From NCBI GenBank assembly GCA_030295235.1, contig AP026144.1, positions 310,001-374,000 of the forward strand: a stretch of 64,000 nt of DNA. Direction: 5' to 3'. The notes below the pieces were generated by a model. It saw nothing but the letters and a program-made list of their open reading frames with translations. It did not search any database and was not told where the DNA came from. The stretch is from Fistulifera solaris (Eukaryota; Bacillariophyta; Bacillariophyceae; Naviculales; Stauroneidaceae). The translations under genes were made by a program, and so were the position numbers. Every line of letters begins with the position of its first letter. Position 1 is the stretch's first letter. Shown here in pieces: positions 6,410 to 23,702 of this stretch.

Positions 6410-6528
6410 GAATTTAGATGCTCCGATAAAAAAATAATGATGAACAGAATAAGTAAATACAAGCTTAATTAATCCTCGTTCATTTTTTGACGTGGAAAGG
6501 CATTATCAACAAAAAAATTTAGTAATTC

Positions 6529-6609
6529 CGGAAACGGCGTTAAAATTCTGCCTCTTCGTAGACGCTACGTAGAATCTTGTAGTGGAGGCAGAATTTTAAC
6601 GTCCTTTCC
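6529..6609. repeat. Dispersed hairpin repeat, copy A
   Basis: Copy A of an ~80-bp repeat found four times in this window. It has arms GTTAAAATTCTGCCTC and GAGGCAGAATTTTAAC around a loop of about 30 bases containing GACGCTACGTAGAATCTTGT. This copy differs from copies B and D at a few loop bases (for example TCTTCG for TCGTCG). It sits between the twin CX9C gene and a truncated kinase fragment. Confidence 0.9.
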
Positions 6610-6678
6610 TGTATAAGGATATAGCTCAAAAACGAAAAAGTACTCCGTAAAAATAAATAAAACTCCATTTGTCCTTTT

Positions 6679-7068
6679 AGTCGGCTATCCTCCCTTTTTG
6701 ATAACGATCAATCGGTTTTGTTTAAAAAGATTCGAAATGGCGAATGGGAATTTAAAGAAAAGGATTGGAACCACATTTCTCAGCCAGCAAAAGATTTTGT
6801 GAAGGTGTTGCTGCTCGTCAACCCGAAAGAAAGATGGTCAGCCAAAGAATGCTTGATGCGCTCGGAATGGCTCAAGCAAGAACCGGAAACGCTTTCTCAA
6901 GTATATTTAGATGGGTCTGTACGCAATATTCGCGAGCAGCGACATAGACTTCAAACTATCGTAAAGGCGATTATGTGGCTTGACGCATCGTCTAAAACCA
7001 CTGCGGAAATCGTTACGCAAGCTCAGGATGTGGTCCTTGATTGCACCCCACCCGCACCTAAAACTTGA
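6679..7068 (+). pseudogene. 3' fragment of a CaM-kinase-like protein kinase gene
   Basis: The translated segment contains VGYPPF followed, after a one-base shift in the T run at 6695-6699, by FDNDQSVLFKKIRNGEWEF and the kinase subdomain XI region AKDFVKVLLLVNPKERWSA. This is the C-terminal lobe of a CAMK-group kinase, plus about 50 further residues. No ATP-binding loop, HRD or DFG segment exists upstream: only the hairpin repeat and the convergent CX9C gene are there. A TTTTAG acceptor-like site precedes the fragment, so it looks like a final exon that lost its upstream exons. A remote spliced partner cannot be ruled out, but the compact neighbours make this unlikely. Confidence 0.6.
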
Positions 7069-7478
7069 ACCTAGTATCAGGAATTGGCTCGCACTCTCTC
7101 TTTTCATTGTCCATGGCTGCTTGATCACTACGGAGTAACGTTTTACAATTGTGAATGTGAGTCCTTAGTTGCGTATCGGGTTTGAATCATCAGTTCTTCA
7201 TTTGTTTTCACATTGATGGAAGCAAAAAACTCGGGAAAAAGAGTTACCACGGTGCACGAACTGGGGCGACCTCTGAAGAAGAGCTACAACGTTTCGCTCT
7301 CCTCGCCGCAATCGATGTACACTTCAGACACATCCAGCTCGTAGTCTTAGGTTTCTAAAAAAGAAAAGCGCCGTCAATTGATGGTTTTGGTTGCTCTCGT
7401 CAATGACAAACCGTAAGACTTTCGCTCATTTCCGACGAATCCCACAACTTGATTACAATCGCTTTATTGCGCTGATTG
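7069..7478. other. Intergenic, nothing recognised
   Basis: About 400 bp between the kinase fragment and a convergent small gene. I see no coding feature, repeat or RNA gene. Confidence 0.4.
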
Positions 7479-7800
7479 CTAATCTTGCTCCTTCTGGTAC
7501 TTTGAAGAAGCAGCAGCACGGAGTTGTACAATCTGCGACCTTACTTCGTTCCGGACCTTTTGGAGTTGTCCAAGCTGTTGCGCTAGCTCATCGCGGGTTT
7601 TCTTTACGGCGGCGGGCCGCTTGGAAAAGATCCTGTACGTCTTCCATTGCGAACGATTCGTCTCGAGTCTTTCTGCCTTTCAGACGCGTCAGGAAGAACA
7701 AAACAATCAACAGGGTCGCAACGCATGCGCCGAAGGTTGCAAGGAACGGGTTTTGGCTCGAGTTAATGTACAAGTAAGCACTTGACGCTGCCTCACCCAT
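7479..7800 (-). CDS. Small single-pass membrane protein with coiled coil
   Basis: The frame starting at 7800 gives MGEAASSAYLYINSSQ, a strong transmembrane helix (FLATFGACVATLLIVLFFLT) and a basic stop-transfer RLKGRK. As read it ends after RRRKENPR. Removing one base in the G/C run at 7614-7616 continues it as FQAAAAVKKTRDELAQQLGQ and then QLQKVRNEVRSQIVQLRAAA, ending at 7479. That tail is a convincing coiled coil, so I treat the break as an indel and predict about 106 residues. No family is recognised. The topology (short N-terminus, one helix, cytosolic coiled coil) would suit a membrane tether, but that is speculative. Confidence 0.55.
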
Positions 7801-9011
7801 TCTTTCTTCTCACATTCAAGCTAATTGATAGCGTGATTCTTTCATCGAATGCATGTCTATTGTGGTTTATTGACATATCGGATCTATGTTGCTGAGTGTT
7901 TTTGTGACATTTGTGTCAAACACAGCCGCTCAACGAGCGCTACCATACCAGAAACAATATCCGGGTACTCCCCTGTCGATGGATTTCCCTACTCTCACGT
8001 ATCGACGGACAGAAACAGAAATTCTGTCAACCAAGTCGCTACGTTTCGCAACAACAGAAGAGGAAGTATCTGGTAGAGCTAAGACGATAAACAGTCAAAG
8101 TTTTCCAAACAACAATATTATGAAGCCTTTACAAATCCGACAAATGAACAAGGTGGAATCTCACTGGGTGATGGTTCCGCCGAGAATGTCACTGCCATCG
8201 GACTAGGTCTTGTTTTATCTTGAAATTCTGAGCTCACGTATGTGGCTCTAACATTCTTGTATCGCGTTGCTTGCAAATCTTTCACGCCTTCACGATCAAC
8301 CCAAATCGTGCAAAGACCCTTGGGCCTCGCCCAAGAGGTTACATTCCGGATGCTTCCGATTTGGGGATCGGAATTCGCATTAGGTCGTGCGGCCATATTG
8401 GCTGAGTCCCTAGTAGTCTGCCCGCTATCCGCATTTCCGTGACACCTACGAGGCCAACGTTTAATTGACGTAGACATTTCAAACCGATGCATCATTCGTT
8501 TATTCTACGGTTTGCATTCGGTTTGCTGTCGTTTACTGCTAAATGACCTAAGACAATATGTCGGTAAATATTGCAATGGCAATCCAGGAAAAGACACTCG
8601 TAAAATAAAGATGATGTCGAAAGACCTAGTATCCGGGTTGTTCTACATCGATACATTTCCTATGGTACCGGTACCAGGCCTACGTGAGAGCCAAGTAGTC
8701 AATCAGAACGTTGCATCTTTGCTTTTTCAAGGTCTTTCATTCGAATTTGTTGGTGAATGTTGCAAAGACATTTATGGCTAAAAAGGAACCTTGAAAGCAT
8801 GATTAATTAATGAAGAATCATCATCGTTGTGAAAAGCAAAATCCGGGTTGTGCCACAACAAAGAGAAAGAGGAAAACTGCTATTGACGTTGCGGTACTTG
8901 CTACGCCCATAAACAAACCGTCGTCCGGCGTCCATCGAAATTTTCGTAATTTTCTTTGATAGGCAAGGCAACAAGGTGTCTTCACATCGATCCTGTTCAG
9001 ACTATGATATT
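7801..9011. other. Intergenic region with only weak open frames
   Basis: About 1.2 kb without a supported gene. Three open frames of modest length are present: 7886-8206 (+, signal-peptide-like start MLLSVFVTFVSNTAAQ), 8118-8495 (-) and 8512-8781 (+). They overlap or abut, show no domain, and have no splice or neighbour support. I leave them uncalled. The RRP8 promoter is probably near the right end. Confidence 0.4.
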
Positions 9012-10017
9012 ATGACGAAAGAAGTTATGAAGTCCGTAGATAAAAGAAGAACAGTTATAGGAAGAAAGAAGACTCTTCCAAGCGTCCTCACAAAGGACCT
9101 GTTACGCACAACAAGAAACGAAAAGAGCCGCCCGGCAACAAACAGGAGAAAAGCAGCGAACCAGTATGGAGTAAAAGTAAGAAGAAGCGTATGCGTGGAT
9201 TGAAGGCCAAGCAAGCGAAACAAGAAGCTTCTGCTTCGTCTCCTTCGGAGTCTTTGCCGAAGGCCGACCATAAAGACAGTACGGCCGAACCAAAGAAACA
9301 AGACCAAACGATGTCGACATTGCAAAAATCGTTCCAAGATCGGTTGTCTGGTTCACGTTTTCGTGTACTGAATGAAGAATTGTATACACAGCCCTCATGG
9401 GAAACCTTTCAGAAATTTCAAGCCAACCCGGAACTCTTTGATCAGTATCATGCCGGGTATCGCAAACAAACGGAACAATGGCCAACCAATCCGGTTCACG
9501 TCATTTTGCAGAAAATACAAAATTACTCATCTCAATCGAAATCAAAAACTCCCTTGGTGATTGCCGATTTAGGGTGTGGTGATGCCGACATTGCGCAGCG
9601 TTTACGGGAGGACACAAACTTTCGCGTGCATTCGTTTGATTTGGTGGCGAAAAGTGAGCTCGTGACGGCATGTGACATGTCTAAAATTCCCTTGGAGTCA
9701 CAGACGGTCGATCTTGCGGTATTTTGCTTATCTCTCATGGGCACAAACTTGGCCGATTTTGTTCGAGAAGCCTTTCGTGTGTTGAAACCAACGGGGCAGT
9801 TGTTTGTCGCCGAAGTCCGATCACGTTTCGAGTCGAAAGAGTCCAAAGACGACTTGTTAGAACACTTTTACAAGTCATGGAGAAGTTGGGATTTACTTGT
9901 CGGAAAACTGATCGAAAGAATAAAATGTTCTTCTTGATGGAATTCGAAAAGAATGGCAATAGACCCGATCCGAAGCTCGAATATACCGCCAAGGCATGTA
10001 TCTACAAACGTAGATAG
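9012..10017 (+). CDS. RRP8: RRP8-like nucleolar rRNA methyltransferase
   Basis: RRP8 methylates an adenine (m1A) in large-subunit rRNA in the nucleolus. The C-terminal catalytic domain contains GSRFRVLNEELYTQPSWE, the SAM-binding motif VIADLGCGDADIAQ, and AVFCLSLMGTNLADFVREA followed by RVLKPTGQLFVAEVRSR, all characteristic of the family. The N-terminus is very Lys/Arg-rich (KKKRMRGLKAKQ), as expected for nucleolar targeting. Two single-base gaps break the frame. One is in the A run at 9042-9045, after which the basic N-terminus continues. The other is in the T run at 9866-9869, after which VMEKLGFTCRKTDRKNKMFF and the end at 10017 follow. With both restored, the length is a multiple of three (335 residues). 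Confidence 0.9.
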
Positions 10018-10090
10018 GTGAGGATAATACGTCTAGGATCTAACATCGTTTTTACACACGAAGCATCTATTAAGATATTGGGTATCTCCT

Positions 10091-11872
10091 TCATGTCCAC
10101 ATCTTGATCACTCCATCCCAACCACACGTAAAAACTGTCGAGGGTTCACGTGGATGCCACGCACAGCAAATAGCAGGACCTCTGCTGTGCGCTTTGTATC
10201 GTTGCAAAATCCGGTGCTTTTTCCAGTCCCAAATGAACAAGCTCCCCGTTCCATCCCCACTCACGAGAAATTGTCCGTCGGTACTAAACGCCATTTCACA
10301 AGCATATCCGGATACTACATGACCCGAGAACTTCCGTTTCTTTTGCAATGAAAACCGATTACCCGCTTGAAAGACAGTGATCGTATTGTCTAGACTTTGA
10401 CCCACAAAGAATGGCTCAGTGGGGTGCAACACCAGACAGGGCATAGAATGCATGGTGGGATCCGAAATGTATTTGACCGGAACACCAATGTCCCATTCCC
10501 AAACCAAAATCTTTTTATCATCACTGCTCGTGACCATTTTGGTCGTTCCTTGATCTTCGACAAAGACGATAGCATTGACAGGAGCCAAGTGGTGGTTGTA
10601 TTCCTGTGTTATCTGGCCCGTTGTCACATCGTAGGTGACAATCTTGTTGTCACTGCAACCGACAACAAAAAAGTTATCATCGTGAGGATAAAACTGTACA
10701 ACGTACGGAACTTTCTTGTTGGTAAAGGTGTTAAGAACTTGACCACTTTCCGTGTCCCATAAACGCAAGTATCGATCAAAGGATGCCGAGACGAATTTAT
10801 TGCCATTGTGATTAAATTGAACATCCCGAACTCCCGCCGAATGGCCTTCATAAGTTCTCATCAATATTTTCTCGGTTACGGACCATACCATGCATTTTCC
10901 ATCCAGACCGGCCGAAAGAAGTAAATGTCCTGTTTTAGGGAACAAGCGTATACGGTGCACGCCCTTACTGTGTCCCATGAATCGATGCGAACATTTTTTC
11001 GGTACAAAACATCTTGGTGCATCGGACGTACTCTGTCCCGCCGGTGGAGCGATCCAAGATCGTCCCTTATAATCATATTCTTGAGCCGCATGGAACGTCG
11101 TACACGGATCGATGGGTGTTTCTTGAAATTTTTGCGGAGGCAACAAATGTGCCATTTTGCGTTCTACCAGCCGCTCGAATGCATTGGTATTGTCTTGTGC
11201 TTCTTCTTCTAAGCCGCGTTGTCGATTCCGTTCTTGAATATAAGCACGTTCCGCCAATTGTTGAGGCGCCAACGGTTCTCCCTTGGCCATATCCGACAGT
11301 TGATGCTCGGTCATCCATTCTTCTTCCACGCCCGGTGGTCCCCATACACCATATTCCGCTTCATCATCGGATCCTTGGACTAAAACATCATCTTGTTTGG
11401 CGGCAATTTTGGGCCGTTTCGTTGTTTGTTCTTGTTGCACCCATTGTTCGAGACGATGCGCATCGTATCCCAGTGTGGTGCGGACCATGACGTGCCCCTC
11501 CGGAGCGAGTGCCTGACCCGTTCGTGCAAATGTTGTGCGCTGTTGTTGAAAGGCAGTGTTATCAAATGCGACGGTCGTCTTGTCGTTGGCTTGTTGTTGT
11601 TGTTGTTGTTGTTTGTGAGAAGCAGTCGGATCGATCGGACCTTGTAGAGGTTGATACAGCACCGATTTCTGTGGATTGTCGTAAAGAATCAATTCACTTT
11701 TCTTTCGTTTGTTCGTAGTAGTGCTATCAGTGCGAAGATGAGGCACCGTGAGAGCCGTAGATTGTACAGAGGGAGCAGCATTCAAGTAACGACGATCGGG
11801 TCGTTGCAACGAAGGTCGATCGTTCGTTTCTGCGTCTTCTTCAACAGAAGAAGCATCGTCCAGTAGGTCCAT
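10091..11872 (-). CDS. CDC40: Splicing factor CDC40/PRP17, WD40 protein
   Basis: The intact 593-residue frame encodes the second-step pre-mRNA splicing factor PRP17. The N-terminal ~280 residues are polar with a Gln tract and include the family segment GVWGPPGVEEEW. The C-terminal ~300 residues form a seven-bladed WD40 propeller starting at CSHRFMGHSKGVHRIRLFPK, with repeats such as SAGLDGKCMVW, SASFDRYLRLWD and CGWDGVIKMW at the very end. It would act in the spliceosome in the nucleus. No intron is needed. The gene is convergent with RRP8, with about 70 bp between stops. Confidence 0.95.
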   Translation of the reverse strand: MDLLDDASSVEEDAETNDRPSLQRPDRRYLNAAPSVQSTALTVPHLRTDSTTTNKRKKSELILYDNPQKSVLYQPLQGPIDPTASHKQQQQQQQANDKTTVAFDNTAFQQQRTTFARTGQALAPEGHVMVRTTLGYDAHRLEQWVQQEQTTKRPKIAAKQDDVLVQGSDDEAEYGVWGPPGVEEEWMTEHQLSDMAKGEPLAPQQLAERAYIQERNRQRGLEEEAQDNTNAFERLVERKMAHLLPPQKFQETPIDPCTTFHAAQEYDYKGRSWIAPPAGQSTSDAPRCFVPKKCSHRFMGHSKGVHRIRLFPKTGHLLLSAGLDGKCMVWSVTEKILMRTYEGHSAGVRDVQFNHNGNKFVSASFDRYLRLWDTESGQVLNTFTNKKVPYVVQFYPHDDNFFVVGCSDNKIVTYDVTTGQITQEYNHHLAPVNAIVFVEDQGTTKMVTSSDDKKILVWEWDIGVPVKYISDPTMHSMPCLVLHPTEPFFVGQSLDNTITVFQAGNRFSLQKKRKFSGHVVSGYACEMAFSTDGQFLVSGDGTGSLFIWDWKKHRILQRYKAHSRGPAICCAWHPREPSTVFTCGWDGVIKMWT

Positions 11873-12565
11873 TGTGTCGTTTACAGTCCAATGTGAAAGA
11901 AAAAGATAAGCAACTGCAAGAGACTGCTGCAGTTAGTTCATAAAGAAACAATAAAGACGATTGATAAACAAATAAATAAAATGCAACGAAATTTGGCCAT
12001 TGTCGCGACGAAATCATCGTCGCCCTTATATTTTTCTCACACACGGACGACGACGTACGACAGCAGTGAGTCACGTACGTGTAACCTTCTTAGTAGTTCA
12101 CGTAAGAACAAAAGGGGTGCGTTGGACCCAAAGTTTCAATTATGAGCCTATCTTATTCCACAATATCATCTTCAACATTAGACTAAAGCTGGTCTGACGA
12201 AAAAATGAATTATCATTCATAGTTTTCAGAGACGGATTCGACCATTTCTCATCACCCACAACGATTGGGCTCGTGACTGCAATCCAGTCCTGGCAAAGTG
12301 GGGCCTACATTTTGGGTCTAGAGTCAACCTGGGGAAGGACATGCGGTCATTTGTGTCATGCGACGACACAGTCTAGAGTCATTCACGAATGAAGTGAAAA
12401 AATTCGAAATTCGAATGGACACAATGACGATGACGATGACCATCATTTCCTTTCAACACAAACAACAGAACGACCAACTGGTCTTGAACTTGAAAGCCAA
12501 GGAATAATTAGAAACGCATAATTATGGAATGAGAAGAACCTCTGATCCTTGTTCTTAAGTGAAAA
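11873..12565. other. Intergenic, divergent upstream regions
   Basis: About 690 bp between divergent genes. It contains a short GACGAT-type tandem near 12426-12440. No gene or RNA is recognised; both promoters are expected here. Confidence 0.4.
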
Positions 12566-13748
12566 ATGAAGATACAACGACGCAAACAGTTTTCGCCGTA
12601 CGTGATCCATTGTACAAGACAACAGAGGCGCATCTTTGGCTCTTTATTGACCATCCTGGCATTCGTCGCCTACACGACAACTATCTGGGCGCCCATGGTG
12701 GCACAAGATCATGCCTGGGTCGGACTTCGAACCATACAACGAAAAAATGGATCTCAAATTCGGCGCAGCCCTTTGTACGTTTTTCCAAGTTGTCCTCGTA
12801 CGCATTTGTTCTCTCAAATAATGTCCTCACATCTCATATTCTTACTTTTTCTTGTTTACAGAATACCGGCGGCCTCGCGAGTTCCGCCAAAAATCTCATT
12901 ATCGTGGCTGGTCATTCCGTTACCATATCGGGGCATTTGGAAGATGCGAATCAAGACGAGAATGACTGGTTTCTGCTGGATTATCAACGGCATCGAGGAT
13001 TGCCGGAAGCTATTGTGGGGCACATTCGAGCCGGTATCGCGGCGGCGCAAAAGGATCCGACCAGTTTGTTAGTATTCAGTGGCGGTGAAACACGGGCGGC
13101 GACGGGTCCCGAAACGGAAGGGGCAAGTTATTATCGGGTGACGGATGCCATGCAATTATGGCCATCGCAATCGACTGTGCGGGCGAGAACGATTACAGAA
13201 GATTTTGCGACAGATTCATTTGAAAATTTGTACGTGTCGTCTTCAATATATCGTTATTGGATGCTGTATGTGTGTCATACTCACCCACTTCTCTCTTTAG
13301 AATGTTCTCGATATGTCGCTTTCGAGAAGTCACAGGATCGTATCCGGACACTATTACCGTAGTATCTTTCTCATTCAAACAAACGCGATTCCAGACTATG
13401 CATGCGAAAGCATTGCGATGGCCACCGAATCGTTTTCAATACATTGGTGTCGATCCTTCAGCATCCACGGGGTTTGTATTGGAAGAAGCCATGAAAGGCG
13501 AGCTCGAAAACTCAGTCAAACCTTTCCAATCCGACCCGTACGGATGTCACTCCAAAATTTTGCAAGAGAAACGCAAGCAGCGAAACCCCTTTTCGCGCAC
13601 CCCGCCCTACACCTTGTCGTGTCCGGAGATGAGTGACTTGCTCCGATTCTGCGGGTCCGATTTGATACCTTTGGACAAAGTGCCGTGGGGCAAAGGAAAT
13701 AATGATTGTCAGCCTTGCATTTTGACGGCCGGTTTTGTTAAAATGTGA
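12566..13748 (+). CDS. DUF218 (YdcF-like) domain membrane protein
   Basis: Exons 12566-12774, 12862-13229 and 13301-13748 are bounded by GTACGT donors and TTTACAG/TTTAG acceptors. Exons 2 and 3 join in phase and contain the DUF218 core: LIIVAGHSVTISG, LLVFSGGETRAATGPETEGA and, across the splice, FENLMFSICRFREVTGSYPD. Eukaryotic members are poorly characterised. Exon 1 in the ATG-12566 frame gives a basic N-terminus and a transmembrane helix (FGSLLTILAFVAYTTTIWAP), but needs one extra base near 12772-12774 to join exon 2. The alternative frame from ATG 12559 joins without correction but has no membrane segment. I prefer the membrane form (about 341 residues) because one-base gaps are common here. 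Confidence 0.78.
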
Positions 13749-13886
13749 TTGTTAATGATAAAACTGACAAAGCAATTTCATAATGGACTAGGATTTCTCA
13801 ACTAGCCATTCTTTTTGTAGAACACAATCAGATTTTTAGCATAAGCACCCATACCCTTGATACGCATCACCAACTATCGTGTTGAG

Positions 13887-14521
13887 ACTAGTGAATGGAC
13901 TCGACTCGGTTCGGTTGGACCAACCGAGTATGAGTCGAGTATACCTGCCAACCGAGTAGAGTCGAGTATGTACTCGATTGAATGACGTCATAGATGCTAC
14001 TGTATACATAACAGTGAATGGGATCTTCGCACTTCGCCAGTTTTGGCGAAGAACCAAGAATTGGTTATGGCTGATGGCCGATGGCAAAGGCCGATCGTAT
14101 CAGAGTAAGAACAGAAGCAGCAATTGGTTACATATTCTCTTTTATCTGTTTATCTGTTCATTATTCATGTCTGAAGATAGCCCTGATATAGAAGTTATCC
14201 TTGGGGACAGGGACGAAGATGGGATGTCGACCACCCCGCCACAAAAGCGCCCAGCCTCTTCTCCTCCTGAAGCTGAACCAAACGCCATACACAATGAAGT
14301 GATTAATCTAATTTAATTGTTAAGCTATAGTTTATAGAGCGTACTTCATTGATTTAATTATTTCGTCGTTCCGTGATGCACATAGCACATAGCACGTTAG
14401 TACAATGGGCTACTATAGTACTCGGTTCAACCGAGTAGTAAAGTATTGGAACCGAACCGGGCTGAACCCGACTCGACTCGGTTGTACTCGGTTCGAAGTC
14501 GAACCGAGTCCCATCACTAGT
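13887..14521. mobile_element. Non-autonomous terminal-inverted-repeat DNA element (~635 bp)
   Basis: The element begins ACTAGTGA and ends TCACTAGT, exact inverted copies, and is flanked on both sides by TGAG (13883-13886 and 14522-14525), a likely target duplication. Subterminal regions on both ends are rich in ACTCGGTT/AACCGAGT units in both orientations. No transposase is recognised. An open frame at 13978-14316 encodes an acidic Ser/Pro-rich tail (EDSPDIEVILGDRDEDG), which could be a remnant of a transposase end or meaningless. The family is unassigned; a four- or five-base duplication is not diagnostic. Confidence 0.65.
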
Positions 14522-14763
14522 TGAGCCGTTCTCTGAGAGCAGGTTTTGTCTTTAAGTTATAGAGGTCTATAATCTCAAAATTTTATTTCCTCGCACCGTC
14601 GTCGGGTCCACACTTTTGTCGCGAACCTTTGAATCCCCCTAAGACCTAATCCTAATGCTATTTGCTGACCGTCGCCCCAATGCTTTTTACTCCGTACTTT
14701 AGATTCATCGGTCATGGGTCATGGCGCATGGCGCAATAAGTTACCACCGGTAGCGTACAGTAC

Positions 14764-14846
14764 CGGGAACGGCGTTAAAATTCTGCCTCGTCGTAGACGC
14801 TACGTAGAATCTTGTACTGGGAGGCAGAATTTTAACGTCCTTCCCC
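14764..14846. repeat. Dispersed hairpin repeat, copy B
   Basis: A full copy with the 16-base perfect arms and the loop seen in copies A and D. The flanks read TA-CCGGGAAC on the left and CCCCGG-TA on the right, so a TA target duplication and a longer terminal inverted repeat starting CCGGG are possible for this copy. Confidence 0.92.
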
Positions 14847-15910
14847 GGTACCTGGTAGGATCCTACAAATAATATACTTTGTAGTCATGAGTCGTGGTCG
14901 TGGGACGACGGGACGACTGCCCTTTCGGTGTTGCTGTCGTGTCTTGATTGTGACCACTAATTTCTGTACTCGCAAAGATCGCAATGTTAATTATTAATTA
15001 GTACCCTTTAACCAATAAAGAAAAGATTACAGCACGGTTAGCGTTCGGCGAGTTCGGCGTTGAATGAGAAAACTGTGGAAATGTAGCAGTAAAAAGTTAG
15101 AGCTAACGATTAGTGGTTAGAAACAATGGAACATTTAGTATTACATCATTGACAGATCCCTTATACCTCTACCATACTACACTGAATTCTCTAGTCAAAA
15201 TATTATCGTTCTGAAACACTGACATCATTTCCACTTTTACTTTCAGACTGGAGCAGCGAACAGGATTCTACGTGGCTTCGTTGCTTCTATTTGTGTTCTA
15301 CACTAAGTTTCGTATGCGGCGTCTTCATTTACTACAAAAAATGTTGCCGTGTCGAATTCATTCTGCACTGACGTGGTCCTCCACGTAAGCACAAAATCGA
15401 GAAAATTAGCTACGTTCGCAAGACTTCCGGAATCGGAGTCCCAGATTCAGTTCTGAATGGCAATCGCACTATCCAGGTTTTCTACTGTTTCCTAGTGGGA
15501 TTTGTCCTATGTCTACTTTTCATTCCTAGCAAATAGCCCTTAATATCGCTTTGAATGTAGTCTTTCAACCGCCCCTCGTATAGCCCCACTTGTAGCCGCC
15601 GATGTCGCCGTCTTCCATCTTCATTCATTATTTATGCTACAGAAACGTAGATTTCAACGTAGTGGAAGTACCGGAAAACGAGTTGTCTGCTTTGTTGCTG
15701 CAGTCGAAGACAAAGGTCAGTTGCTTTTACTGCTCGCAGTTTTTTCGTGCTCAACCTGGATGGAAGCGTTGTTTGCGAGATTGGATTAGGTTGTATAAAG
15801 GGGCGTTGACTTCATTTACTCTGCCCATACTCCTTCCAGTTTCTCTACATTTAATTAGATCCGCCCCACCGATTGGACTGCTTTGTGTTGCTCGAGGTAT
15901 CGCGCTCACA
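14847..15910. other. Gene-poor stretch, possible untranslated leader
   Basis: About 1.06 kb without a supported gene. An open frame from 15602 overlaps the start of the next gene in another arrangement and might be an upstream exon (GTCAGT donor near 15717), but I have no domain evidence for it. Confidence 0.35.
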
Positions 15911-16719
15911 ATGACCGAAATTAGTCTCAACTCAAGATCGACCGAGTCCGCCCCGATATCGCCTACCGCCAGCGGACAAAGCGATATTCCCTTTTGAATC
16001 TCAAGAAGCGATCGAATAAGAACGATTCGAAACGTGTTGTCCTTGCCTCGGTAAACTCTGCTTTCTTAGACGGCTTGTTTGCGGATGTCGCCCAGGCACA
16101 AGGAGATTCATTTTCGGATGAATCCAACAGTTTTTGCTTCGACGAATGCGATACGCGCAGTGACCCCTCAAAGTCTTTTAAGAAAACACGTCTCTCTAAA
16201 ACAAAGTCTATGACGCGTTGCGGGAAGTCATATTTACAGCTAAATATGCCAGAGGCATCGACTGTTTCGAGCGAGTTCGATTCGATGTTCTCTTCCACTG
16301 TTTCTCCCTACGCAGCACAACGAAGCGACTCTCTTGAGTTTCAGCTCAGTTGTGTTTCTGAATCTTCTTGTGATAACGTCGCTGCTCGCAACACGGCAAT
16401 CTCTACAACTGCTAAGCTTGCATTTCCGAGGCTTCTTTCGGTATCTACGTGTGCTAACTCCTCTAGCACTCTGCTACCTCGAAAGGTATCCGATCTACAA
16501 TCACTTGTCACTGAAGACTCGTCCCCCAAAGAGAGCTACGGATGGTTTGTTGAAATGGACGATGACCACTACAATAACTCATCGGACCTTTACAAGGCCT
16601 CTACAGGCACTCTTGCATTTTCTGCACCTACCGCGCCCAAAGCTGCTAACTTCGATGCCGAAGTCGAATGGGCAAAGGCCGCCGATACGGTTGATGATGT
16701 CCTCGGGGACTTCTTCTAA
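15911..16719 (+). CDS. Unknown Ser-rich protein with acidic WAKAADTVDDVL tail
   Basis: The frame from ATG 15911 reads MTEISLNSRSTESAPISPTA and stops at a TGA in the T run 15992-15995. Adding one T continues it as LNLKKRSNKNDSKRVVLASV to the stop at 16719, about 269 residues. The main part is Ser-rich with predicted phosphorylation-type motifs. It ends with an aromatic/acidic segment (SYGWFVEMDDD), FSAPTAPKAANFDAEVEW and AKAADTVDDVLGDFF. I do not recognise a characterised family. An intron model (donor near 15716, acceptor at 15924) would also keep the second part open. No signal peptide or membrane helix is evident in the main exon. Confidence 0.62.
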
Positions 16720-18602
16720 AAAGTTTCCACACTTTCACGTCTCCCATCTATCTACGCGCTACGCTACATACATTTATCTATCCTTCCTACTACCATCCAT
16801 CTCACACCACCTGTGATCAAACCTTTTCATTGAATACATTCTTTGGATTTTAAGATATCAGACATATGTTTTGTTCTGAAATCAACGCCGACAGATTGCA
16901 CCCAAGACTTTAGCTCTTAGGATAATTTAGCACTCAGTCTTTTCACACACTAATGTCTTTCGCTAGAGTGCCGATGTCGTCAGCCATTTTTCATCACAGA
17001 TTGCATGTAAAAATGAATGGAGAAGCTCATATAAGTCTACCTGGTATGGAGAATCGATGAAAAGAACAAGCCACAGCTAGATCTTAAAAAAATTGGTTTC
17101 GTTTCGAGTTTCGAGAGATCCTAGCCCACGGTCACGGAGTATCTTTGCGTGCGAAATCGAGAACGCTAAAGAAGTCAATTCTCGAAAGGTCGCTGACGTA
17201 CACCGTACATCCGCTATCCGTACATTTCGCCTTTCTGCCGCGTTGTACTTTACTGAGTCAAAACGTGAAACCGCAACGGTACACACACCACGAAATCCGT
17301 TCGCTTGGACAACAGAAACTCGTGGCTGACGTACGTGATCTCCTTAACCCCCACCCTGGTGAAGTAAAACGAAAATTCTTCCGCCAAACAGATTGTTTTC
17401 TTTTGGTGATCGCAGAAGATTGTTTTATTGTTTAACGCCTCTGTTATTTGTGTATTGTTATCTTTGTGGCGAATTTTCGCAGAAAGCGATGAACGATGAA
17501 CTATGAACGACACTGCAATTATACATGATGATGTTCTTGACTAGCAATTCTTGACCGACGACGACGATGCTCAGTCAAATAATTCTTTTTCATCTCTTCT
17601 GGTATTCTCTCCTTGCAAATCTTTTCCTCTTTAGAAGAATTGCTAATTGATGGCTGGTTATCGTTCTAGATTATGGCGCATGAGGTCATGTGAATTGATT
17701 TGTGGACAGGATATAACAAGTCTGTCTCGAATCAAACAGCGTATTGATGATTTGAAGATTCAACGACGGAGGCATCGAAAACCAATGAATCTCATTCAAC
17801 CAGACGAAGCTTAACTAAACCGATGTGAGCTTCCAAAATAGAAGCACCACGTCGGTTACTGCATTTTACCATCCCGTGCCCACATCGATGGGTGGTTAAT
17901 CATAGCTTCTGAGGTCATGGAGCGCTGCTACCGACATCATACGGAAAATCTATACGACGAGTCGTCGACTATGGAAAGAAAAACCGTGGAAGTTGCCGAC
18001 AGACGAGAGCTCTTTGACTAAGGTCTGGCAATAGAATGGATCGAAACCGAACTCTTGTGCGACTATTTGGTGCACATGTCGCACATTCCTGCTCGTCCTC
18101 TTGAAAAGAAATCAAAAAAAAGACGTTTATCGATCGAATAGGCTTCACCGGAAAAGTCTTTGTGCCATAAAAATGAACTCTTCGCATTCATGATGGACGA
18201 CGAGAATTCGTCTGTGAACAAAAAAGTGGATCATTTATTTTTGTTGTGATGGCAATCGGCTTTCTTGGAATTTTCCTACGGGTTTCTTTTACGTGGCATT
18301 TGTACTAGGGAATAAGAACCCTTGAAGTTCACCTGCCAAGTAAAGATCGAAAAGTCGCGCCTTGTTTGGTTCTAAGCGCTCCATACATCATTACCGGTAC
18401 GACGCTATACCGTGTCTCGCTACAATGTGCACCACGACTTTCTGACTTCGTCATCTTCCTTTTGCGGTGATGCTACTGCAACCACGTTTTTGTTTCGTTT
18501 TCTTGTTCTCCTGTTCTGCAAACATGCCATACATTCGAAACGAACGAATTAGAGTCAGATTCCTTCGCTTGCCATATTTATTAACGCCTTATAAAAGACA
18601 AT
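16720..18602. other. Largest gene-poor stretch in the left half
   Basis: About 1.9 kb in which the only coding candidate is the 54-residue frame at 17650-17814, listed separately. Other open frames (17077-17513) overlap each other on both strands and show no domain. No tRNA, repeat or transposon protein was recognised. Confidence 0.4.
17650..17814 (+). CDS. Candidate small protein (54 residues), unsupported
   Basis: The frame runs from MAGYRSRLWRMRSCE to a basic helical part SRIKQRIDDLKIQRRRHRK and ends NLIQPDEA. It is preceded by a pyrimidine-rich TTTTCCTCTTTAG sequence that could be a splice acceptor, so it might instead be a last exon. The composition (Arg/Lys-rich amphipathic helix) is more protein-like than neighbouring frames, but no family is known to me. 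Confidence 0.25.
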   Translation: MAGYRSRLWRMRSCELICGQDITSLSRIKQRIDDLKIQRRRHRKPMNLIQPDEA

Positions 18603-19190
18603 ATGATGCGGTCGATTCGCTTTGCCGCCGTCCTCATTTTGGGGACACTTACCCTTTCTTGCTCATTCGGTGTTTCGCCGAACGTGCTGACACGAGTACG
18701 CCGATCCATTTCGGCCAGATCCGCCGTTTCGACACCAGATACTGCTCGACGCGATCAGTCAGAGTCAAACGAAAACACCACCAATTCATGGATCCCCACT
18801 AAGGAAGGAAACTTTCTTCCCAATTTCGAACGAAATCGAATCATCCGAGTGAATACTTTGGAAGAATACAGGCGCCACGTCGGCGAAGAACAACATCGCA
18901 TGGTCTGTGTTCGCTTCTTCTCGCAAACTTGTCGGGCCTGTAAGGCAGCCGAGCCCATGTTCCGACGTATGACACTGGAATATCCCTCGATCAAGTTTGT
19001 CGAAGTTCCCTTGCTGGAACACAACATGTACATGCTGAAAGGATTGGGCGTCCCGTCGTTCCCTTATGTGCATTTGTATTATCCGGGTGCTGGATTAGTC
19101 GAGGAGAGTCGTATCAATCGCAAAGTGTTTGCGGATTTCCAAGCTGTCTTGCAACAGTATGTGGACGGATACTGTCGCGTAGAACTCTAG
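18603..19190 (+). CDS. Plastid-targeted thioredoxin-like protein, CRAC active site
   Basis: This intact 195-residue protein begins with a signal peptide (MMRSIRFAAVLILGTLTLSC) followed by SFGVSP, so Phe follows the probable cleavage site, as in diatom plastid preproteins. The mature part is a thioredoxin fold with VCVRFFSQTCRACKAAEPMF (catalytic-type cysteines C110 and C113) and the cis-proline loop GVPSFPYVHLYYPG (Pro151). The CRAC motif differs from the WCGPC of classical thioredoxins and resembles atypical thioredoxin-like proteins of plants (for example the ACHT/WCRKC groups), so the target is unknown. A disulfide reductase or redox sensor in the stroma is the likely role. Confidence 0.82.
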   Translation: MMRSIRFAAVLILGTLTLSCSFGVSPNVLTRVRRSISARSAVSTPDTARRDQSESNENTTNSWIPTKEGNFLPNFERNRIIRVNTLEEYRRHVGEEQHRMVCVRFFSQTCRACKAAEPMFRRMTLEYPSIKFVEVPLLEHNMYMLKGLGVPSFPYVHLYYPGAGLVEESRINRKVFADFQAVLQQYVDGYCRVEL

Positions 19191-19280
19191 TTGAGGCGCC
19201 TTTCCTTCACTTTGCATCATGTACATAATTGTAAAATAGAAATCAAAAATTTCATACGGGGCTTTACTGTTACATTGTTT

Positions 19281-20620
19281 TCACTCAACCCGAGCTTTCT
19301 TATTGGCTGACTCGGTAACCTCCGCTGGTAGATCGAGTGGAGGGACAGTACGGACCGCTTCGGGTAGATGAAACGACACGCAAAGCATATTTTTCGTCGG
19401 CGAGACATCCCGTACAATGTGTATATCGGCTTCTTGTATAGTACAACGCAGTGCTTCCTCACAACGCAAAATGGCTTCTTGGTGGTCGTCGGATTCCGAA
19501 GATTTGGGACAAAAGCAATGAACGTGCACAACAGGGCATTTGGAAAGTTTCCATCCACGGAATGCATCGAGAAATTCGGGTGCCGAGGCGGGTAGATTCA
19601 TAATGACATGATCCACTTGTTCGATTTGATTTTGAATTTCCTGTACCAACAAACGGGCGTCTGTATTGTAGCAAACTAGATTCTCACACTTGTTGTCCGA
19701 AGCATTGATTTGTAAATACCGAAAGGATTCTGGATTTAGATCATTGGCAAAGACGCGAATGCTGACATGAGACGGAGCTTTGGATTTGTTGCCTTGATGT
19801 GAACGAGCTGTCAAAGGAACCGCAAAGGGCCTACTCCGGCCATGAGATCCAGTACGGTGGTTGTCTCACGCTGGGACTCCTTGGCTTCTTTCCGAATGAC
19901 ATTCACGAGTCGTCGATGCTCTCCTCCGAGTCGGCTGTTCCAATACACAGTTTGAAAATCCAATTGAAACGTGCAATTTTCTTCCTTCACGGTGACTTCG
20001 GACCATCCCTTTGCACTACTTCCCGCAATGACTTCCATTCCGAACGTCCGATATTCCGTTTCAATGGTACCGACTTTGTTCACGACTGTTTTGATTCTAG
20101 GATGATGCTTGTCGAGTAGTACTTTTCCAATCCAGTATTTGTACGGCAAGAGTTCCTCGCGTAAATTGATGTGAATGAGCGACCCGACTGTTTCAAATGC
20201 GGAAGGGATTTCTTTGGTGTCCGGGGGAAGAATTTTTCGCAGCAACTCATCGGCATCTAGATCGTCGTACGTGATTCGCACGGTTCGGACTAGTTGGCGT
20301 GCATCATTATTCGTATCGGCTAGAAAGGATTGGACCACTTCATGTTCGAAAACATTCTTGTTAGAATTCTTTTGAAGAAGGAGGATCCGACGCCTCGAGT
20401 CTTCCGGATCTTCCAAGACGGTCTTCATTTTGGGCCGGTAAAACAGTACAGAGCTCAGCAGACGTCTCGCTTCGGCTGTCTTTTTGGCCGGAATCGAGAG
20501 AGCGGGAAAATCGGATGTTTCTTCAAGCGTTTTTACAGAGGGAAAGGCATCCAGTGGATAACATGATTGTTGATCGCTTTCTTGTTTGTCATGGCTCTCA
20601 GATATCGATTTTTCGTACAT
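19281..20620 (-). CDS. TRM5: tRNA (guanine37-N1)-methyltransferase TRM5
   Basis: TRM5 forms m1G37 in tRNAs reading CNN codons. The minus-strand frame from 20620 has the D1/D2 features, including VGSLIHINLREELLPYKYWI and the segment TIETEYRTFGMEVIAG, and reaches the SAM motif VLDLMAGVGP. There it breaks: one T is missing from the run at 19824-19826. With it restored, the motif continues as GPFAVPLTARS, then VFANDLNPESFRYLQ and the NLPASAPEFLDAFRG motif, the TRM5-type NxPP equivalent with Ala for the second Pro. The end is at 19281. Total length with the correction is 446 residues. The protein acts in cytosol/nucleus or mitochondria; I see no clear presequence. Confidence 0.92.
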
Positions 20621-20897
20621 TTTGTTTTGATATACGAGTGAACAGAATACGAGCTATTAAGTTATTTCTCACTGCTTTGTTTAAAAAAAGTAATGGTCAA
20701 AGTAAAGTATCTTGGTAATGATAAACGAAAAGGTTGAAAATAAATAATGAACGATCGGCGGATCGCGAAGGAGGAGAAACGTGTAACCGTGCAATCGTAT
20801 CCGGTACTCGGGTGACGGACAGAGTGACGAAGGTGCCGAGTCCGAGTGCCTACAAATTTAGGGTTACTTTGTAGGTTGGCTTACTTCTTGCACTTAC
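20621..20897. other. Intergenic upstream of TRM5
   Basis: No feature other than the likely TRM5 promoter. A run of GGTGAC/GGGTGAC words appears around 20810-20830 without an obvious repeat unit. Confidence 0.35.
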
Positions 20898-20967
20898 GGA
20901 AGGACGTTAAAATTCTGCCTCCCAGTACAAGATTCTACGTAGCGTCTACGACGAGGCAGAATTTTCC
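20898..20967. repeat. Dispersed hairpin repeat, copy C (inverted, one end lost)
   Basis: This copy is in the opposite orientation to A, B and D: it starts GGAAGGACGTTAAAATTCTG and runs through the reverse complement of the loop. Its right arm matches only to GAGGCAGAATTTT and then diverges (CCCAGAAC), so the outer right end has been lost or replaced. Confidence 0.88.
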
Positions 20968-21291
20968 CAGAACTTCGACTGTAGAGGATTTCGGGTGACC
21001 AAGTAAAAGTAGCCGTTGCTTAGATTCCAACTAAACCAAAAACGAGATTCGTGGTTACCCCTTATAAGGACGTGTAGATACTTCATATAATGTGTTTAAA
21101 GAAATATTGACGTTGTGTTCTCGATATCATCGTTGCAAAAGCGCATGCCGCATTTGAAGGCATGTTTGAGCCGGGAAATAGAAGCACCATTACAAGGGTG
21201 TACCAGGTATTTTGAATACTTTTCTCTATTGTCACAAACCTTTGTTTACAAACAAATACCCTCAAGAAGTATTCATAGCGAGCAAAGAAGA

Positions 21292-23563
21292 ATGAGGGGT
21301 CTGGTGTTTTCTCGATATTATGTTTCCTGCACGCTGATATTTCTCGCTTCGACCACCACCGCTTTCCCTGATGCTCCTATGATACAACGACAAGAATTCA
21401 TTGCCGCCATGCAACGTATCGACGATGAGCAAATTGTAAATCAACAGCAACAGGAAATACAGCAAAGACTGAGAAGTGCCGCAATTCGAGTCACTCCGGA
21501 TCATCGCGAACTATACAATCAAAATGGAAATCAATACAACGGAGCGAACGAATACGCCAACAAATATTACAATTACCAAGGAGGACAGAACTATTACGAG
21601 CCAGTGGATTTGTCAGAATTCGCCTTCAAGTACGTCGGCTGTCAAGATATCGCTACGTGGAGTGACAATCACGCGTCGGCGGGTCAAACTCCCACGGCCA
21701 TGCGTCGCTTCGTCACCTTTCGTCTGTGTGAAGCCAATACGTGCTCGACCTACAACAAATATGGCTGCAATAATCACTATGGAGAGTACGTGATCCCCAT
21801 GGAAGACTATCTCGATATCATGACAACCTATCATTTCAAGCAATACAGTCGCTACTGCCAAACTTGTGAGGCGTGCAGTAAGTTTGACTACACGTTGTAT
21901 CTCAATAAAGTGGCCGCCTATCAGTCGTATGTGAATCAAATGAATAAGCGGAACCAAAATAACAACAAGAACAATAATAATAATAGTAATGGCAGCAGTT
22001 CGAGCAGTTCCACCAACGATGATACGGCCGCCGACGATGCATCGACGAACGCCGATGATGCGGTCGCCACCGACGATGCCGCGGCGACTGATGATGCCAC
22101 GACCGATGACACAATGCAAGAAGCTCCAAGCGATGATGGTCATGTGACGTACGACGATGCACTCGGATACAAGTACGGGGCTTACGGTTACAACTTTTAC
22201 GATGATGCCTTCAAATCTTACGCCGGGTCGGACGATGATACTTCGAATCAAATCGGAGATGATTTTTGGAATCAATACGTCTGGCACTACGGAGGGGCCA
22301 GCAGCAACGACGACAACAACAATGGAGGAAGGAGGCTTTCTTATTCGTCGAATAGTTATTCCAACAATGGTGCGTCTGTTTACAACAAGAATTTTGGAAA
22401 TTACGTGAGTGGAGGTTATTATGGGGGTAACATACCAGCGCCGAAGTTACCCTGGTACATTGCTTCGGACGGAACCTGCTTATTCAAGTCGGCGTGTCAA
22501 AATTTCAAGGGTGCGTGCCGAGCGTATAACGCAAATGCCACCAACTACATACCATATTTTTCATGCCGGGCATTCCAAATGGGAAACGCGGTAAGCTATG
22601 TTGGTCCACATTGCCGCAGCGATGGACACACGATCGGCATCGCGTTGTACAAAGATCAATATTGCAGTTCCTATGTCGGCGACGTTTCCGAAATTGAGAA
22701 GTACACCGGCAAAAAGTTTGACGACAGTGAGCTATCCCTGTTCTACGACAAGTCATGTATATCGTGCAAAGCGTCGGAAAGTTACGCACTCGCTACATCA
22801 ACGAGCAGTAGCAGAAACAGTGGAAGTGGAAGTGGTAGTTCAACGGTACACGAAACGTACCCTTTTGTACGGTTGCGTATGACTCAAGTGCAAAATGCAA
22901 CAAGAATTTCAAATCAACCAATGCATTGGTAGGTACTTTCTTTGTTGCTCGGCCCTGGTGCGTGTCATGATATTGCCTAACAACTACTTCGATGTTTTCT
23001 AGTACGAAGATGATGAATCTCAAAGTAAAGTGTGCACATTCATAGACACACTTATCGAAAATCATTATAATGAGCGCGGTCAGATTGTTGTGAAAGAGGA
23101 TTTCCGTTTTTCAAAGTGGAATTCCGGAGCCGAATATATCAGTCTTGCGCAGAAAGCCTCTCCAATACAGCTTATATCGCTGATAACAAGTATGGCGATT
23201 TCTTTGAGTCTGCTGATTTACTCGGTGCATTTATACAAAAAGTTAATGTACCGCATGCCTTGGAGACCGCCCAAGAGTGTCCATTCTCCGACTTCTGGTG
23301 GACAGTCTGTTGCCGGCGACTATGATTTCGATACACGTGTAGAAGCAGGCAGATTATCTCGAATTAACTCCGGCATCACCGCCCTTCGATCTATCAGCTA
23401 CGATGGGCACTCCGTCTCTGCATTCTCTCAATTTCCCGCTGGCCCTCTCACCGGTCAGGCCACACAGGCACCCGGTGGCATTTTACACGGAGATTTAAGT
23501 TACAGTGGTCGTTCACGGCACGGCAATGAGGACACAGCACCTTCTGCCGGAGAATTCGCCTAG
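21292..23563 (+). CDS. Secreted, Asn/Asp-rich type I membrane protein, diatom family (paralogue 1)
   Basis: The product (about 711 residues) starts with a signal peptide, MRGLVFSRYYVSCTLIFLAS. Its Cys-rich ectodomain has a first module (FKYVGCQDIATW ... TFRLCEANTCSTYNKYGC ... YCQTCEACSKFDY) and a second module (YVGPHCRSDGHTIGIALYKD, then QYCSSYVGDVSE ... SCISC). A long low-complexity linker rich in Asn, Asp, Ser, Tyr and Gly separates them. Exon 1 (21292-22866) probably ends at a GTACGG donor. Exon 2 (23003-23563) begins YEDDESQSKVC and carries a transmembrane helix (LISLITSMAISLSLLIYSVH) and a cytosolic tail with MPWRPPKS and SRINSGI. The next gene, in the same orientation, is a paralogue. 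A cell-surface or secretory-pathway location follows from the topology; the function is unknown. Confidence 0.82.
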
Positions 23564-23622
23564 ACCTCATGTAATTAATAATATTGTTTTCGCCCTGATC
23601 AAGTTACGCTCTATCAATCTCT
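23564..23622. terminator. 3' region of paralogue 1 up to hairpin repeat
   Basis: This is the presumed 3' untranslated region. The hairpin repeat copy D starts 60 bp beyond the stop codon, so it may lie in the transcript. No canonical polyadenylation element is certain. Confidence 0.3.
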
Positions 23623-23702
23623 GGGAACGGCGTTAAAATTCTGCCTCGTCGTAGACGCTACGTAGAATCTTGTACCGGGAGGCAGAATTTTAACGTCCTT
23701 CA
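23623..23702. repeat. Dispersed hairpin repeat, copy D
   Basis: A full copy, nearly identical to B, with perfect 16-base arms. It lies between the two tandem membrane-protein paralogues. The outer right end (GTCCTTC) is followed by AATAG, without the CCGG seen in B. Confidence 0.92.

What the first reader, a model, noticed from the sequence alone, without database searches (positions are those of the whole stretch)
6529..23702. Four copies of an ~80-bp dispersed hairpin repeat in 17 kb
Copies at 6529, 14764, 20898 (inverted) and 23623 share perfect 16-base arms (GTTAAAATTCTGCCTC / GAGGCAGAATTTTAAC) and an almost invariant ~30-base loop with its own palindrome CTACGTAG. Loop conservation in both orientations means recent spread or selection, beyond pairing alone. 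Copy B has TA at both outer ends, compatible with a tiny Tc1/mariner-type MITE; A and D do not show this clearly. All copies are intergenic, one 60 bp after a stop codon. No protein in the window explains mobility. It could also act as a foldback transcript or small-RNA source.
Basis: seen in the sequence. Interest (0 to 1): 0.72.

Follow-up and report, generated by a model that had tools for sequence, protein, structure and literature searches.

The report
Tiny jumping hairpins marking parental chromosomes
The four hairpins are copies of a 79-base non-coding jumping element that spread through the genome of what looks like a hybrid alga, and two versions of it, one on each parental chromosome set, appear to label which parent a chromosome came from.

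Summary
Four copies of a ~79-bp hairpin lie at 6531, 14766, 20898 (inverted) and 23624; copy C has one damaged arm. The host is a 51.7-Mb eukaryote with homoeologous contigs, probably the hybrid diatom Fistulifera solaris (inferred). The loop has 323 matches genome-wide, against 2 for a reversed-pattern control.

It is a MITE, but not of the Tc1/mariner type. In 74 copies the flanking 3-mers match as CNG target duplications far beyond chance (31 identical against 9.8 expected; middle base agrees in 54 against 22.9). ACC-N-GGT is over-represented at targets. CWG duplications with GGG-starting ends characterise the NuwaI group of the PIF/Harbinger (PHIS) superfamily, found only in animals in the one survey consulted (passages). 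PHIS-type transposase domains occur in the genome, but none of 24 loci shows these ends.

The main new point is reciprocal subgenome specificity. Exact A-type loops lie mostly on one contig set (59 of 63 assignable), sister B-type loops only on the other (67 of 67). No copy was found at eight homoeologous sites examined. The loop is no better conserved than the arms and changes are not compensated, so no selection on an RNA hairpin is seen.

The parts
6531..6608 (+). Copy A, 78-bp MITE, subtype A2 (GAAACGGC..GTCCTTTC, TTCGTAG after the left arm). Flanks CCG (6528-6530) and CTG (6609-6611): CNG on both sides, middle base differs.
14766..14844 (+). Copy B, 79-bp MITE, subtype A1 (GGAACGGC..GTCCTTCC), with an identical CNG target duplication on both sides
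   Evidence: 14767-14849 folds with DNA z -5.4 and RNA z -5.3
14763..14765 (+). Target duplication CCG, left of copy B
14845..14847 (+). Target duplication CCG, right of copy B; context GTACC..GGTAC
20898..20967 (-). Copy C, inverted, about 9 bp lost inside one arm (..GAATTTT|CC then CAG 20968-20970); no matching duplication on the other side
23624..23701 (+). Copy D, subtype A1; left flank CTG (23621-23623), right end eroded (..CTTC AATAG), so no intact duplication; absent at the homoeologous site on contig C21

Best explanation
The repeat is a very small non-autonomous DNA transposon (MITE), 79 bp long: two ~25-bp terminal inverted repeats around a ~29-bp spacer. A transposase made elsewhere recognises the GGAACGGCGTT / GGAAGGACGTT ends, cuts the element out and inserts it into CNG, preferably inside ACC-N-GGT, leaving a 3-bp CNG duplication. 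The enzyme is most likely of the PHIS superfamily (PIF/Harbinger and relatives), NuwaI-like. Shown here: copy number, dispersal, the duplication, the target preference, and no copy found at homoeologous sites. Inferred: the enzyme class and the cut-and-paste steps. The family was present in both parents of a hybrid genome. It amplified separately as an A-type in one parental lineage and a sister B-type in the other, and shows almost no exchange between the two chromosome sets since they came together (inferred from the distribution). It carries no sign of selected RNA function.
For: Genome-wide: 323 loop matches against 2 control; 125 matches to a 35-mer left half at up to 2 mismatches against 0 control. 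TSD: 74 distinct copies with both arms; flanking 3-mers at the element ends identical in 31 of 74 (10,000 permutations: mean 9.8, maximum 20); middle base agrees in 54 of 74 (mean 22.9, maximum 43); of 35 copies with CNG on both sides 29 are identical (mean 11.0, maximum 21). The agreement appears in all three ascertainment groups (7/11, 36/45, 11/18), and four outward control offsets give 13-22 of 74. Target: ACC before N in 17 and GGT after N in 16 of 74, both in 11 of 74, against 14 ACCNGGT in the 64-kb window. Homoeolog sites: four window sites (no arm or loop match at up to 3 mismatches in 40 kb of C21; D gap 99 bp against 7 bp), C3 (134 against 24 bp), C30 (667 against 60 bp), C15 and C25 (no copy reported in the 219- and 108-bp gaps). 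Subgenome split: A-type exact loop 59 in set A, 4 in set B, 3 unassigned (66 exact rows); the 34 one-mismatch rows listed all lie on C2, C4, C6 and C8, none on C1, C3, C5 or C7; of 100 listed left-half matches 97 lie in set A, 0 in set B, 3 unassigned. B-type loop 0 in set A, 67 in set B, 1 unassigned (68 rows). On the five checked contig pairs alone the table is 17/0 against 0/16, p = 8.6e-10. PHIS-type transposase domain PF13359: 24 matches in this genome. NuwaI: CWG TSD, TIR usually starting GGG (PMC4482050, passages, section 7).
Against: No autonomous element with these ends was found: none of the 24 PF13359 loci (1.5-kb flanks) has the TIR at its ends (the CNG-flanked TIR scan found nothing in real or shuffled loci, so its power is unknown). 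The one Harbinger-like element there with clear ends (L065) has a different TIR and a TCA duplication. 43 of 74 copies do not keep an identical 3-mer. CNG is broader than the published CWG: 13 of the 54 agreeing middle bases are C or G. A 1-bp duplication of N at a CNG target would give the same pattern and cannot be told apart. One nested copy (L054) does not fit the simple CNG duplication. Base-level empty sites are not clean because intergenic DNA of the two subgenomes is too divergent. Four A-type exact loops lie in set B.
Confidence: 0.8

Rival explanations
1. A MITE moved by a transposase of another superfamily that also makes 3-bp duplications (for instance CMC/CACTA-like), with the CNG preference a coincidence.
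For: No partner element was found. 3-bp duplications are not unique to PHIS: PMC4482050 gives 2-4 bp for CMC (passage).
Against: Ends start GG and not CACT[A/G] (the CACTA ends are recalled). CWG plus GGG-starting ends is the published NuwaI signature, and 24 PF13359 matches exist in the genome.
Confidence: 0.14
2. A Tc1/mariner-type MITE with TA duplications.
For: Copy B lies within GTAC sequences on both sides.
Against: The best-supported duplication over 74 copies is CNG directly at the ends. In the window only copy B shows TA outside, and GTAC-rich context surrounds many copies.
Confidence: 0.02
3. A selected RNA or DNA hairpin (small-RNA source, terminator, foldback transcript) kept by function.
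For: Strong hairpin folding of copy B: RNA -35.2 kcal/mol, z -5.3; DNA -21.3, z -5.4.
Against: 70 one-sided and 2 two-sided changes at paired positions in 60 copies, 1 of them compensatory; the loop is not more conserved than the right arm where it was not selected on; 0 Rfam matches at gathering threshold in the window; no copy found at eight homoeologous sites.
Confidence: 0.03
4. Spread by segmental or tandem duplication rather than transposition.
For: Some close pairs and partial copies occur (L017, L025, L047, L054, L060), and one site is present on two contigs (L100/L101).
Against: Joined-flank searches of the 74 copies against the fetched DNA span the junction only for L017, L025 and L047 (against themselves, plus L012 for one L017 copy), for L054 (whose flank is itself a copy and so matches the other copies), and for copy D at its C21 counterpart. 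Flanks are otherwise unrelated, with target duplications.
Confidence: 0.01

Closest known systems
NuwaI group of the PHIS superfamily (PMC4482050, passages and section 7 seen)
   Same: 3-bp CWG target duplication; terminal inverted repeats of 12-61 bp usually starting GGG; PF13359-type transposase domains are present in this genome.
   Different: Here N is also C or G; the host is not an animal (the survey found NuwaI in 16 animal genomes only); the element is non-autonomous at 79 bp and no autonomous partner is in hand.
PIF/Harbinger MITEs (Tourist-like; the Tourist name is recalled)
   Same: Small size, inverted repeats, 3-bp duplication, many copies.
   Different: PIF/Harbinger duplications are TWA (passage in PMC4482050); here CNG.
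Zebrafish Harbinger3 (recalled, from no call)
   Same: Recalled CWG duplication inside a longer palindromic target containing ACCWGGT, resembling the ACC-N-GGT preference here.
   Different: Recalled only; the search found no paper and the listing showed none on it.
Subgenome-specific transposon relics, as used for Xenopus laevis (cited in PMC5935921, passage)
   Same: Dispersed relics distinct to each progenitor, which identify parental chromosome sets.
   Different: Here two reciprocal subfamilies of one MITE in a probable diatom; the F. solaris paper names the method and says it needs long-read, robust assemblies.

Membership tests
MITE (general) | Short, non-coding, terminal inverted repeats | tested here: met
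   79 bp, ~25-bp TIRs, 22 of 25 end positions paired in the consensus
MITE (general) | High copy number, dispersed, unrelated flanks | tested here: met
   323 loop matches against 2 control; flanks differ
MITE (general) | Target site duplication | tested here: met
   31 of 74 identical 3-mers, permutation mean 9.8, maximum 20
MITE (general) | Insertion polymorphism or empty sites | tested here: met
   No copy found at eight of eight homoeologous sites: no room at C3 and C30, none in 40 kb of C21 for the four window sites, none reported in the C15 and C25 gaps. No base-level clean empty site; between strains not testable here
PHIS superfamily, NuwaI group | CWG target duplication | tested here: inconclusive
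   CNG: middle base agrees in 54 of 74; T 22, A 19, C 7, G 6. W is preferred but not exclusive
PHIS superfamily, NuwaI group | TIR usually starting GGG | tested here: inconclusive
   GGAAC after the 3-bp CNG; GGGAAC if one base of the duplication is counted to the element
PHIS superfamily, NuwaI group | Autonomous partner: DDE transposase ORF and Myb/SANT ORF between the same TIRs | tested here: inconclusive
   0 of 24 PF13359 loci carry this TIR at their ends within 1.5-kb flanks; published autonomous elements average ~4.5 kb, so short flanks could miss the ends; Myb/SANT not searched
PIF/Harbinger sensu stricto | TWA duplication | tested here: not met
   Duplication is CNG
Tc1/mariner MITE | TA duplication directly at the ends | tested here: not met
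   Offset scan puts the duplication at CNG
microRNA or foldback RNA gene | Compensatory change in the stem | tested here: not met
   1 compensatory among 72 changed paired positions in 60 copies
microRNA or foldback RNA gene | Expression of a processed small RNA | not testable with these tools
   No expression data at hand

The most novel reading that the evidence does not exclude
A CNG-targeting, NuwaI-like PHIS transposition system exists outside animals, in a stramenopile alga. Its 79-bp MITEs burst independently in the two parents of an allodiploid and never crossed between the subgenomes after hybridisation, so each copy is a permanent tag of parental origin. That gives an independent test of the subgenome assignment and of homoeologous exchange (for example contig C40, which carries both types).
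Probability: 0.45. Interest if true: 0.55.

Novelty: new member of a known kind. Interest (0 to 1): 0.42.

Why it matters
If the host is Fistulifera solaris, the two reciprocal subfamilies supply the transposon-relic method of separating subgenomes. A 2018 homoeolog paper described that method as needing long-read, robust assemblies, and used gene GC content and codon usage instead (passages of PMC5935921). The tags would test that assignment directly, help to date the parental bursts, and expose exchanges between homoeologous chromosomes. The CNG duplication would also extend a transposon group that one survey found only in animals to algae. Mechanistically the element itself is ordinary: a very small MITE.

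Tried and rejected
Tc1/mariner reading: rejected, because the duplication is CNG. Functional hairpin: rejected on compensation and on loop-versus-arm divergence, and no Rfam family matches in the window. An apparent 7-8-bp duplication at L057 (GGAGAAC on both sides) was set aside: 7-9-base agreement is not among the 20 best offsets over the 74 copies. Horizontal source: a 20-mer of the arm has 0 exact matches in viral contigs and 1 in prokaryote genomes (L105); L105 is a lone arm without the hairpin, and about 0.5 chance matches are expected from that collection's size (my arithmetic). Autonomous partner: 24 PF13359 loci scanned for these ends at up to 6 mismatches in 21 (the convincing hits, in L073, are a diverged 80-bp copy, and L062 has one weak 6-mismatch hit), for any near-perfect 14-bp TIR and for CNG-flanked TIRs (nothing in real or shuffled loci); none fits. 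Paralogous empty sites among the fetched loci: none usable. Of the 145 window ORFs of at least 90 aa, 17 were scanned against Pfam and none matched a transposase family. A search of solved structures for one of them gave nothing.

Limits: one search lists 100 of 323 loop places, one search lists 100 of 125, one search lists 100 of 134. The subgenome table uses the 66 exact A-type loops (all listed) and the 68 B-type loops (all listed). Set A and set B follow contig parity (even C2-C26 and odd C29-C43, against odd C1-C27 and even C28-C42). Homoeology was checked for five pairs only (C21/22, C15/16, C25/26, C30/31, C3/4); C30/31 rests on weaker matches (80% over 398 bp, 72% over 100 bp). Copies were chosen for similarity, so divergence and age are biased low. 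The TSD test used 74 distinct copies with both arms out of 85 loop hits in fetched DNA (overlapping fetches and copies without both arms dropped). Divergence counts used the 60 of 74 copies with the 63-base core. The organism name is inferred; no call shows it.
Full report
OBSERVATION. The four hairpins are real and at the stated places. The arm has 8 window hits at up to 2 mismatches against 0.16 expected. Arms are perfect in A, B and D; copy C has lost about 9 bases in one arm. Copy B folds far better than its shuffles.

GENOME CONTEXT. The window is C22:310001-374000 of a 51.7-Mb, 61-contig genome. It is eukaryotic: the 17 ORFs scanned include a DENN protein, a mitochondrial carrier, WD40 proteins and an Mg-protoporphyrin methyltransferase. 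A 2.5-kb gene of the window has one other copy, 92% identical, on C21, and C21 is collinear in blocks with the first 30 kb of the window at 81-90% identity. This identification is an inference.

COPY NUMBER AND ANATOMY. The loop CGTAGACGCTACGTAGAATC has 323 matches at up to 3 mismatches, against 2 for the control. Reading 63 places in fetched DNA and then 74 copies with both arms gives a 79-bp element: GGAACGGCGTTAAAATTCTGCCTC, ~29-bp spacer, GAGGCAGAATTTTAACGTCCTTCC. There is also a 78-bp subtype with GAAACGG ends and TTCGTAG after the left arm (window copy A belongs to it).

TARGET DUPLICATION. Comparing left and right flanks over offsets, the strongest agreement lies directly at the ends. 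The 3-mer there is identical on both sides in 31 of 74 copies (10,000 permutations: mean 9.8, maximum 20); 29 of these 31 are CNG. The middle base agrees in 54 of 74 (mean 22.9, maximum 43): T 22, A 19, C 7, G 6. The agreement holds in copies chosen in three different ways (7/11, 36/45, 11/18) and falls to 13-22 of 74 at four outward control offsets. Eleven of 74 copies sit in ACC-N-GGT, a 7-mer with only 14 occurrences in the 64-kb window. In the window, copy B alone has an intact duplication (CCG/CCG). A 1-bp duplication within CNG would look the same and cannot be excluded.

EMPTY SITES. The 40 kb of C21 opposite the first 30 kb of the window hold no arm and no loop of either type at up to 3 mismatches. 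At copy D the window has 99 bp where C21 has 7 bp; around A and B the intergenic DNA is too divergent to align. Four further copies were checked through their homoeologs. There is no room for the element on C3 (query gap 134 against 24 bp) or C30 (667 against 60 bp, one bounding match weak; a 333-bp repeat is also missing). On C15 (403 against 219 bp; the difference fits loss of the MITE plus another ~100-bp repeat) and C25 (237 against 108 bp) there would be room, but no copy is reported there. No copy was found at any of the eight sites.

TWO RECIPROCAL SUBFAMILIES. The arms also occur on the other contig set: 24 of the 100 listed places (one of them the right arm of L009). Two loci there (L047, L073) show a different loop. 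A search with that B-type loop (27 bases, up to 2 mismatches) gave 68 places and 0 in the control, and 12 of the 24 arms abut one of them. By contig parity the exact A-type loops fall 59 in set A, 4 in set B and 3 elsewhere (66 in all); the B-type loops fall 0, 67 and 1 (68 in all). On the five checked pairs alone the table is 17/0 against 0/16, p = 8.6e-10. The truncated lists agree: 34 of 34 listed one-mismatch A-type loops are on C2, C4, C6 and C8, and 97 of 100 listed left halves are in set A with 3 unassigned. Three of the four A-type loops in set B were read: L009 and L047 carry a distinct TCCG junction and L024 is diverged, so none of these three looks like a recent immigrant. The fourth is on C40, which carries both types and may be a recombinant or misassigned contig. 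The simplest history (inferred) is one family in the common ancestor, separate bursts in each parent, then hybridisation with little or no movement afterwards.

AGE AND SELECTION. In 18 copies (of 20 fetched on their left half), the rest differs from consensus by 34 of 792 positions (4.3%), biased low by selection of the copies. The unselected loop part differs by 19/342 and the right arm by 15/450, so the loop is not specially conserved. Paired positions in 60 copies show 70 one-sided and 2 two-sided changes, 1 of them compensatory. Recent spread explains the similarity; no RNA function is indicated.

WHICH TRANSPOSASE. Three-base CWG duplications and TIRs usually starting GGG define the NuwaI group of PHIS, found only in 16 animal genomes in that survey (PMC4482050: passages, section 7). 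PF13359, the PHIS-type DDE domain, has 24 matches here, so such enzymes exist or existed. None of these loci shows the MITE's ends within 1.5 kb, and one has other ends with a TCA duplication. The PHIS assignment is an inference from duplication and ends; membership is not shown.

LITERATURE. Searches for MITEs or transposons with diatoms and with Fistulifera (14 of 14 listed, 15 of 27, 7 of 7, 15 of 18) showed no title or abstract opening that describes this repeat; only passages of PMC4482050, PMC5935921 and PMC13276009, and one section of the first, were seen. One F. solaris paper mentions the relic method and says it needs long-read assemblies.

VERDICT. A real, recently spread MITE of a known general kind, with an unusual CNG target and an informative two-subgenome distribution.

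Noticed in passing
L007:1664-1995 (C31): A ~333-bp repeat with ~16-bp inverted ends (CTAGACCTCTGTCCGT / ACGGACAGAAGTCTAG) flanked by TATACT on both sides; 21 further near-full-length places at 86-100% identity in a capped list (14 in set A, 4 in set B, 3 unassigned). Looks like another MITE family.
   Followed up: partly
L038:1313-1413 (C16): A ~101-bp AT-rich repeat without detected inverted ends, 12 other places at 91-96% identity in a capped list (11 in set A, 1 on C40); none reported at the C15 counterpart.
   Followed up: partly
L065:626-3235 (C31:274451 region): PIF/Harbinger-like element with a 429-aa open frame, a perfect 14-bp TIR GGCCCGTTCCTAAC and a TCA duplication.
   Followed up: partly
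L054 (C31:501201-501366) and L022 (C4:1944441): L054 is a copy nested in the loop of another copy. L022 has 7 extra bases at the same loop position that resemble what such an insertion might leave after excision.
   Followed up: partly
C40: Contig with A-type copies at 7570 and 211018 and a B-type copy at 463035: possible homoeologous exchange or chimeric contig.
   Followed up: no
   Followed up: no
L100 (C43:349240) and L101 (C44:16928): The same insertion site on two contigs with matching flanks but differing right ends of the element: allelic or duplicated contig ends.
   Followed up: partly
L073:2393-2482 (C7): A diverged B-type copy about 0.5 kb from a PF13359 transposase remnant with stops; probably coincidence.
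   Followed up: partly
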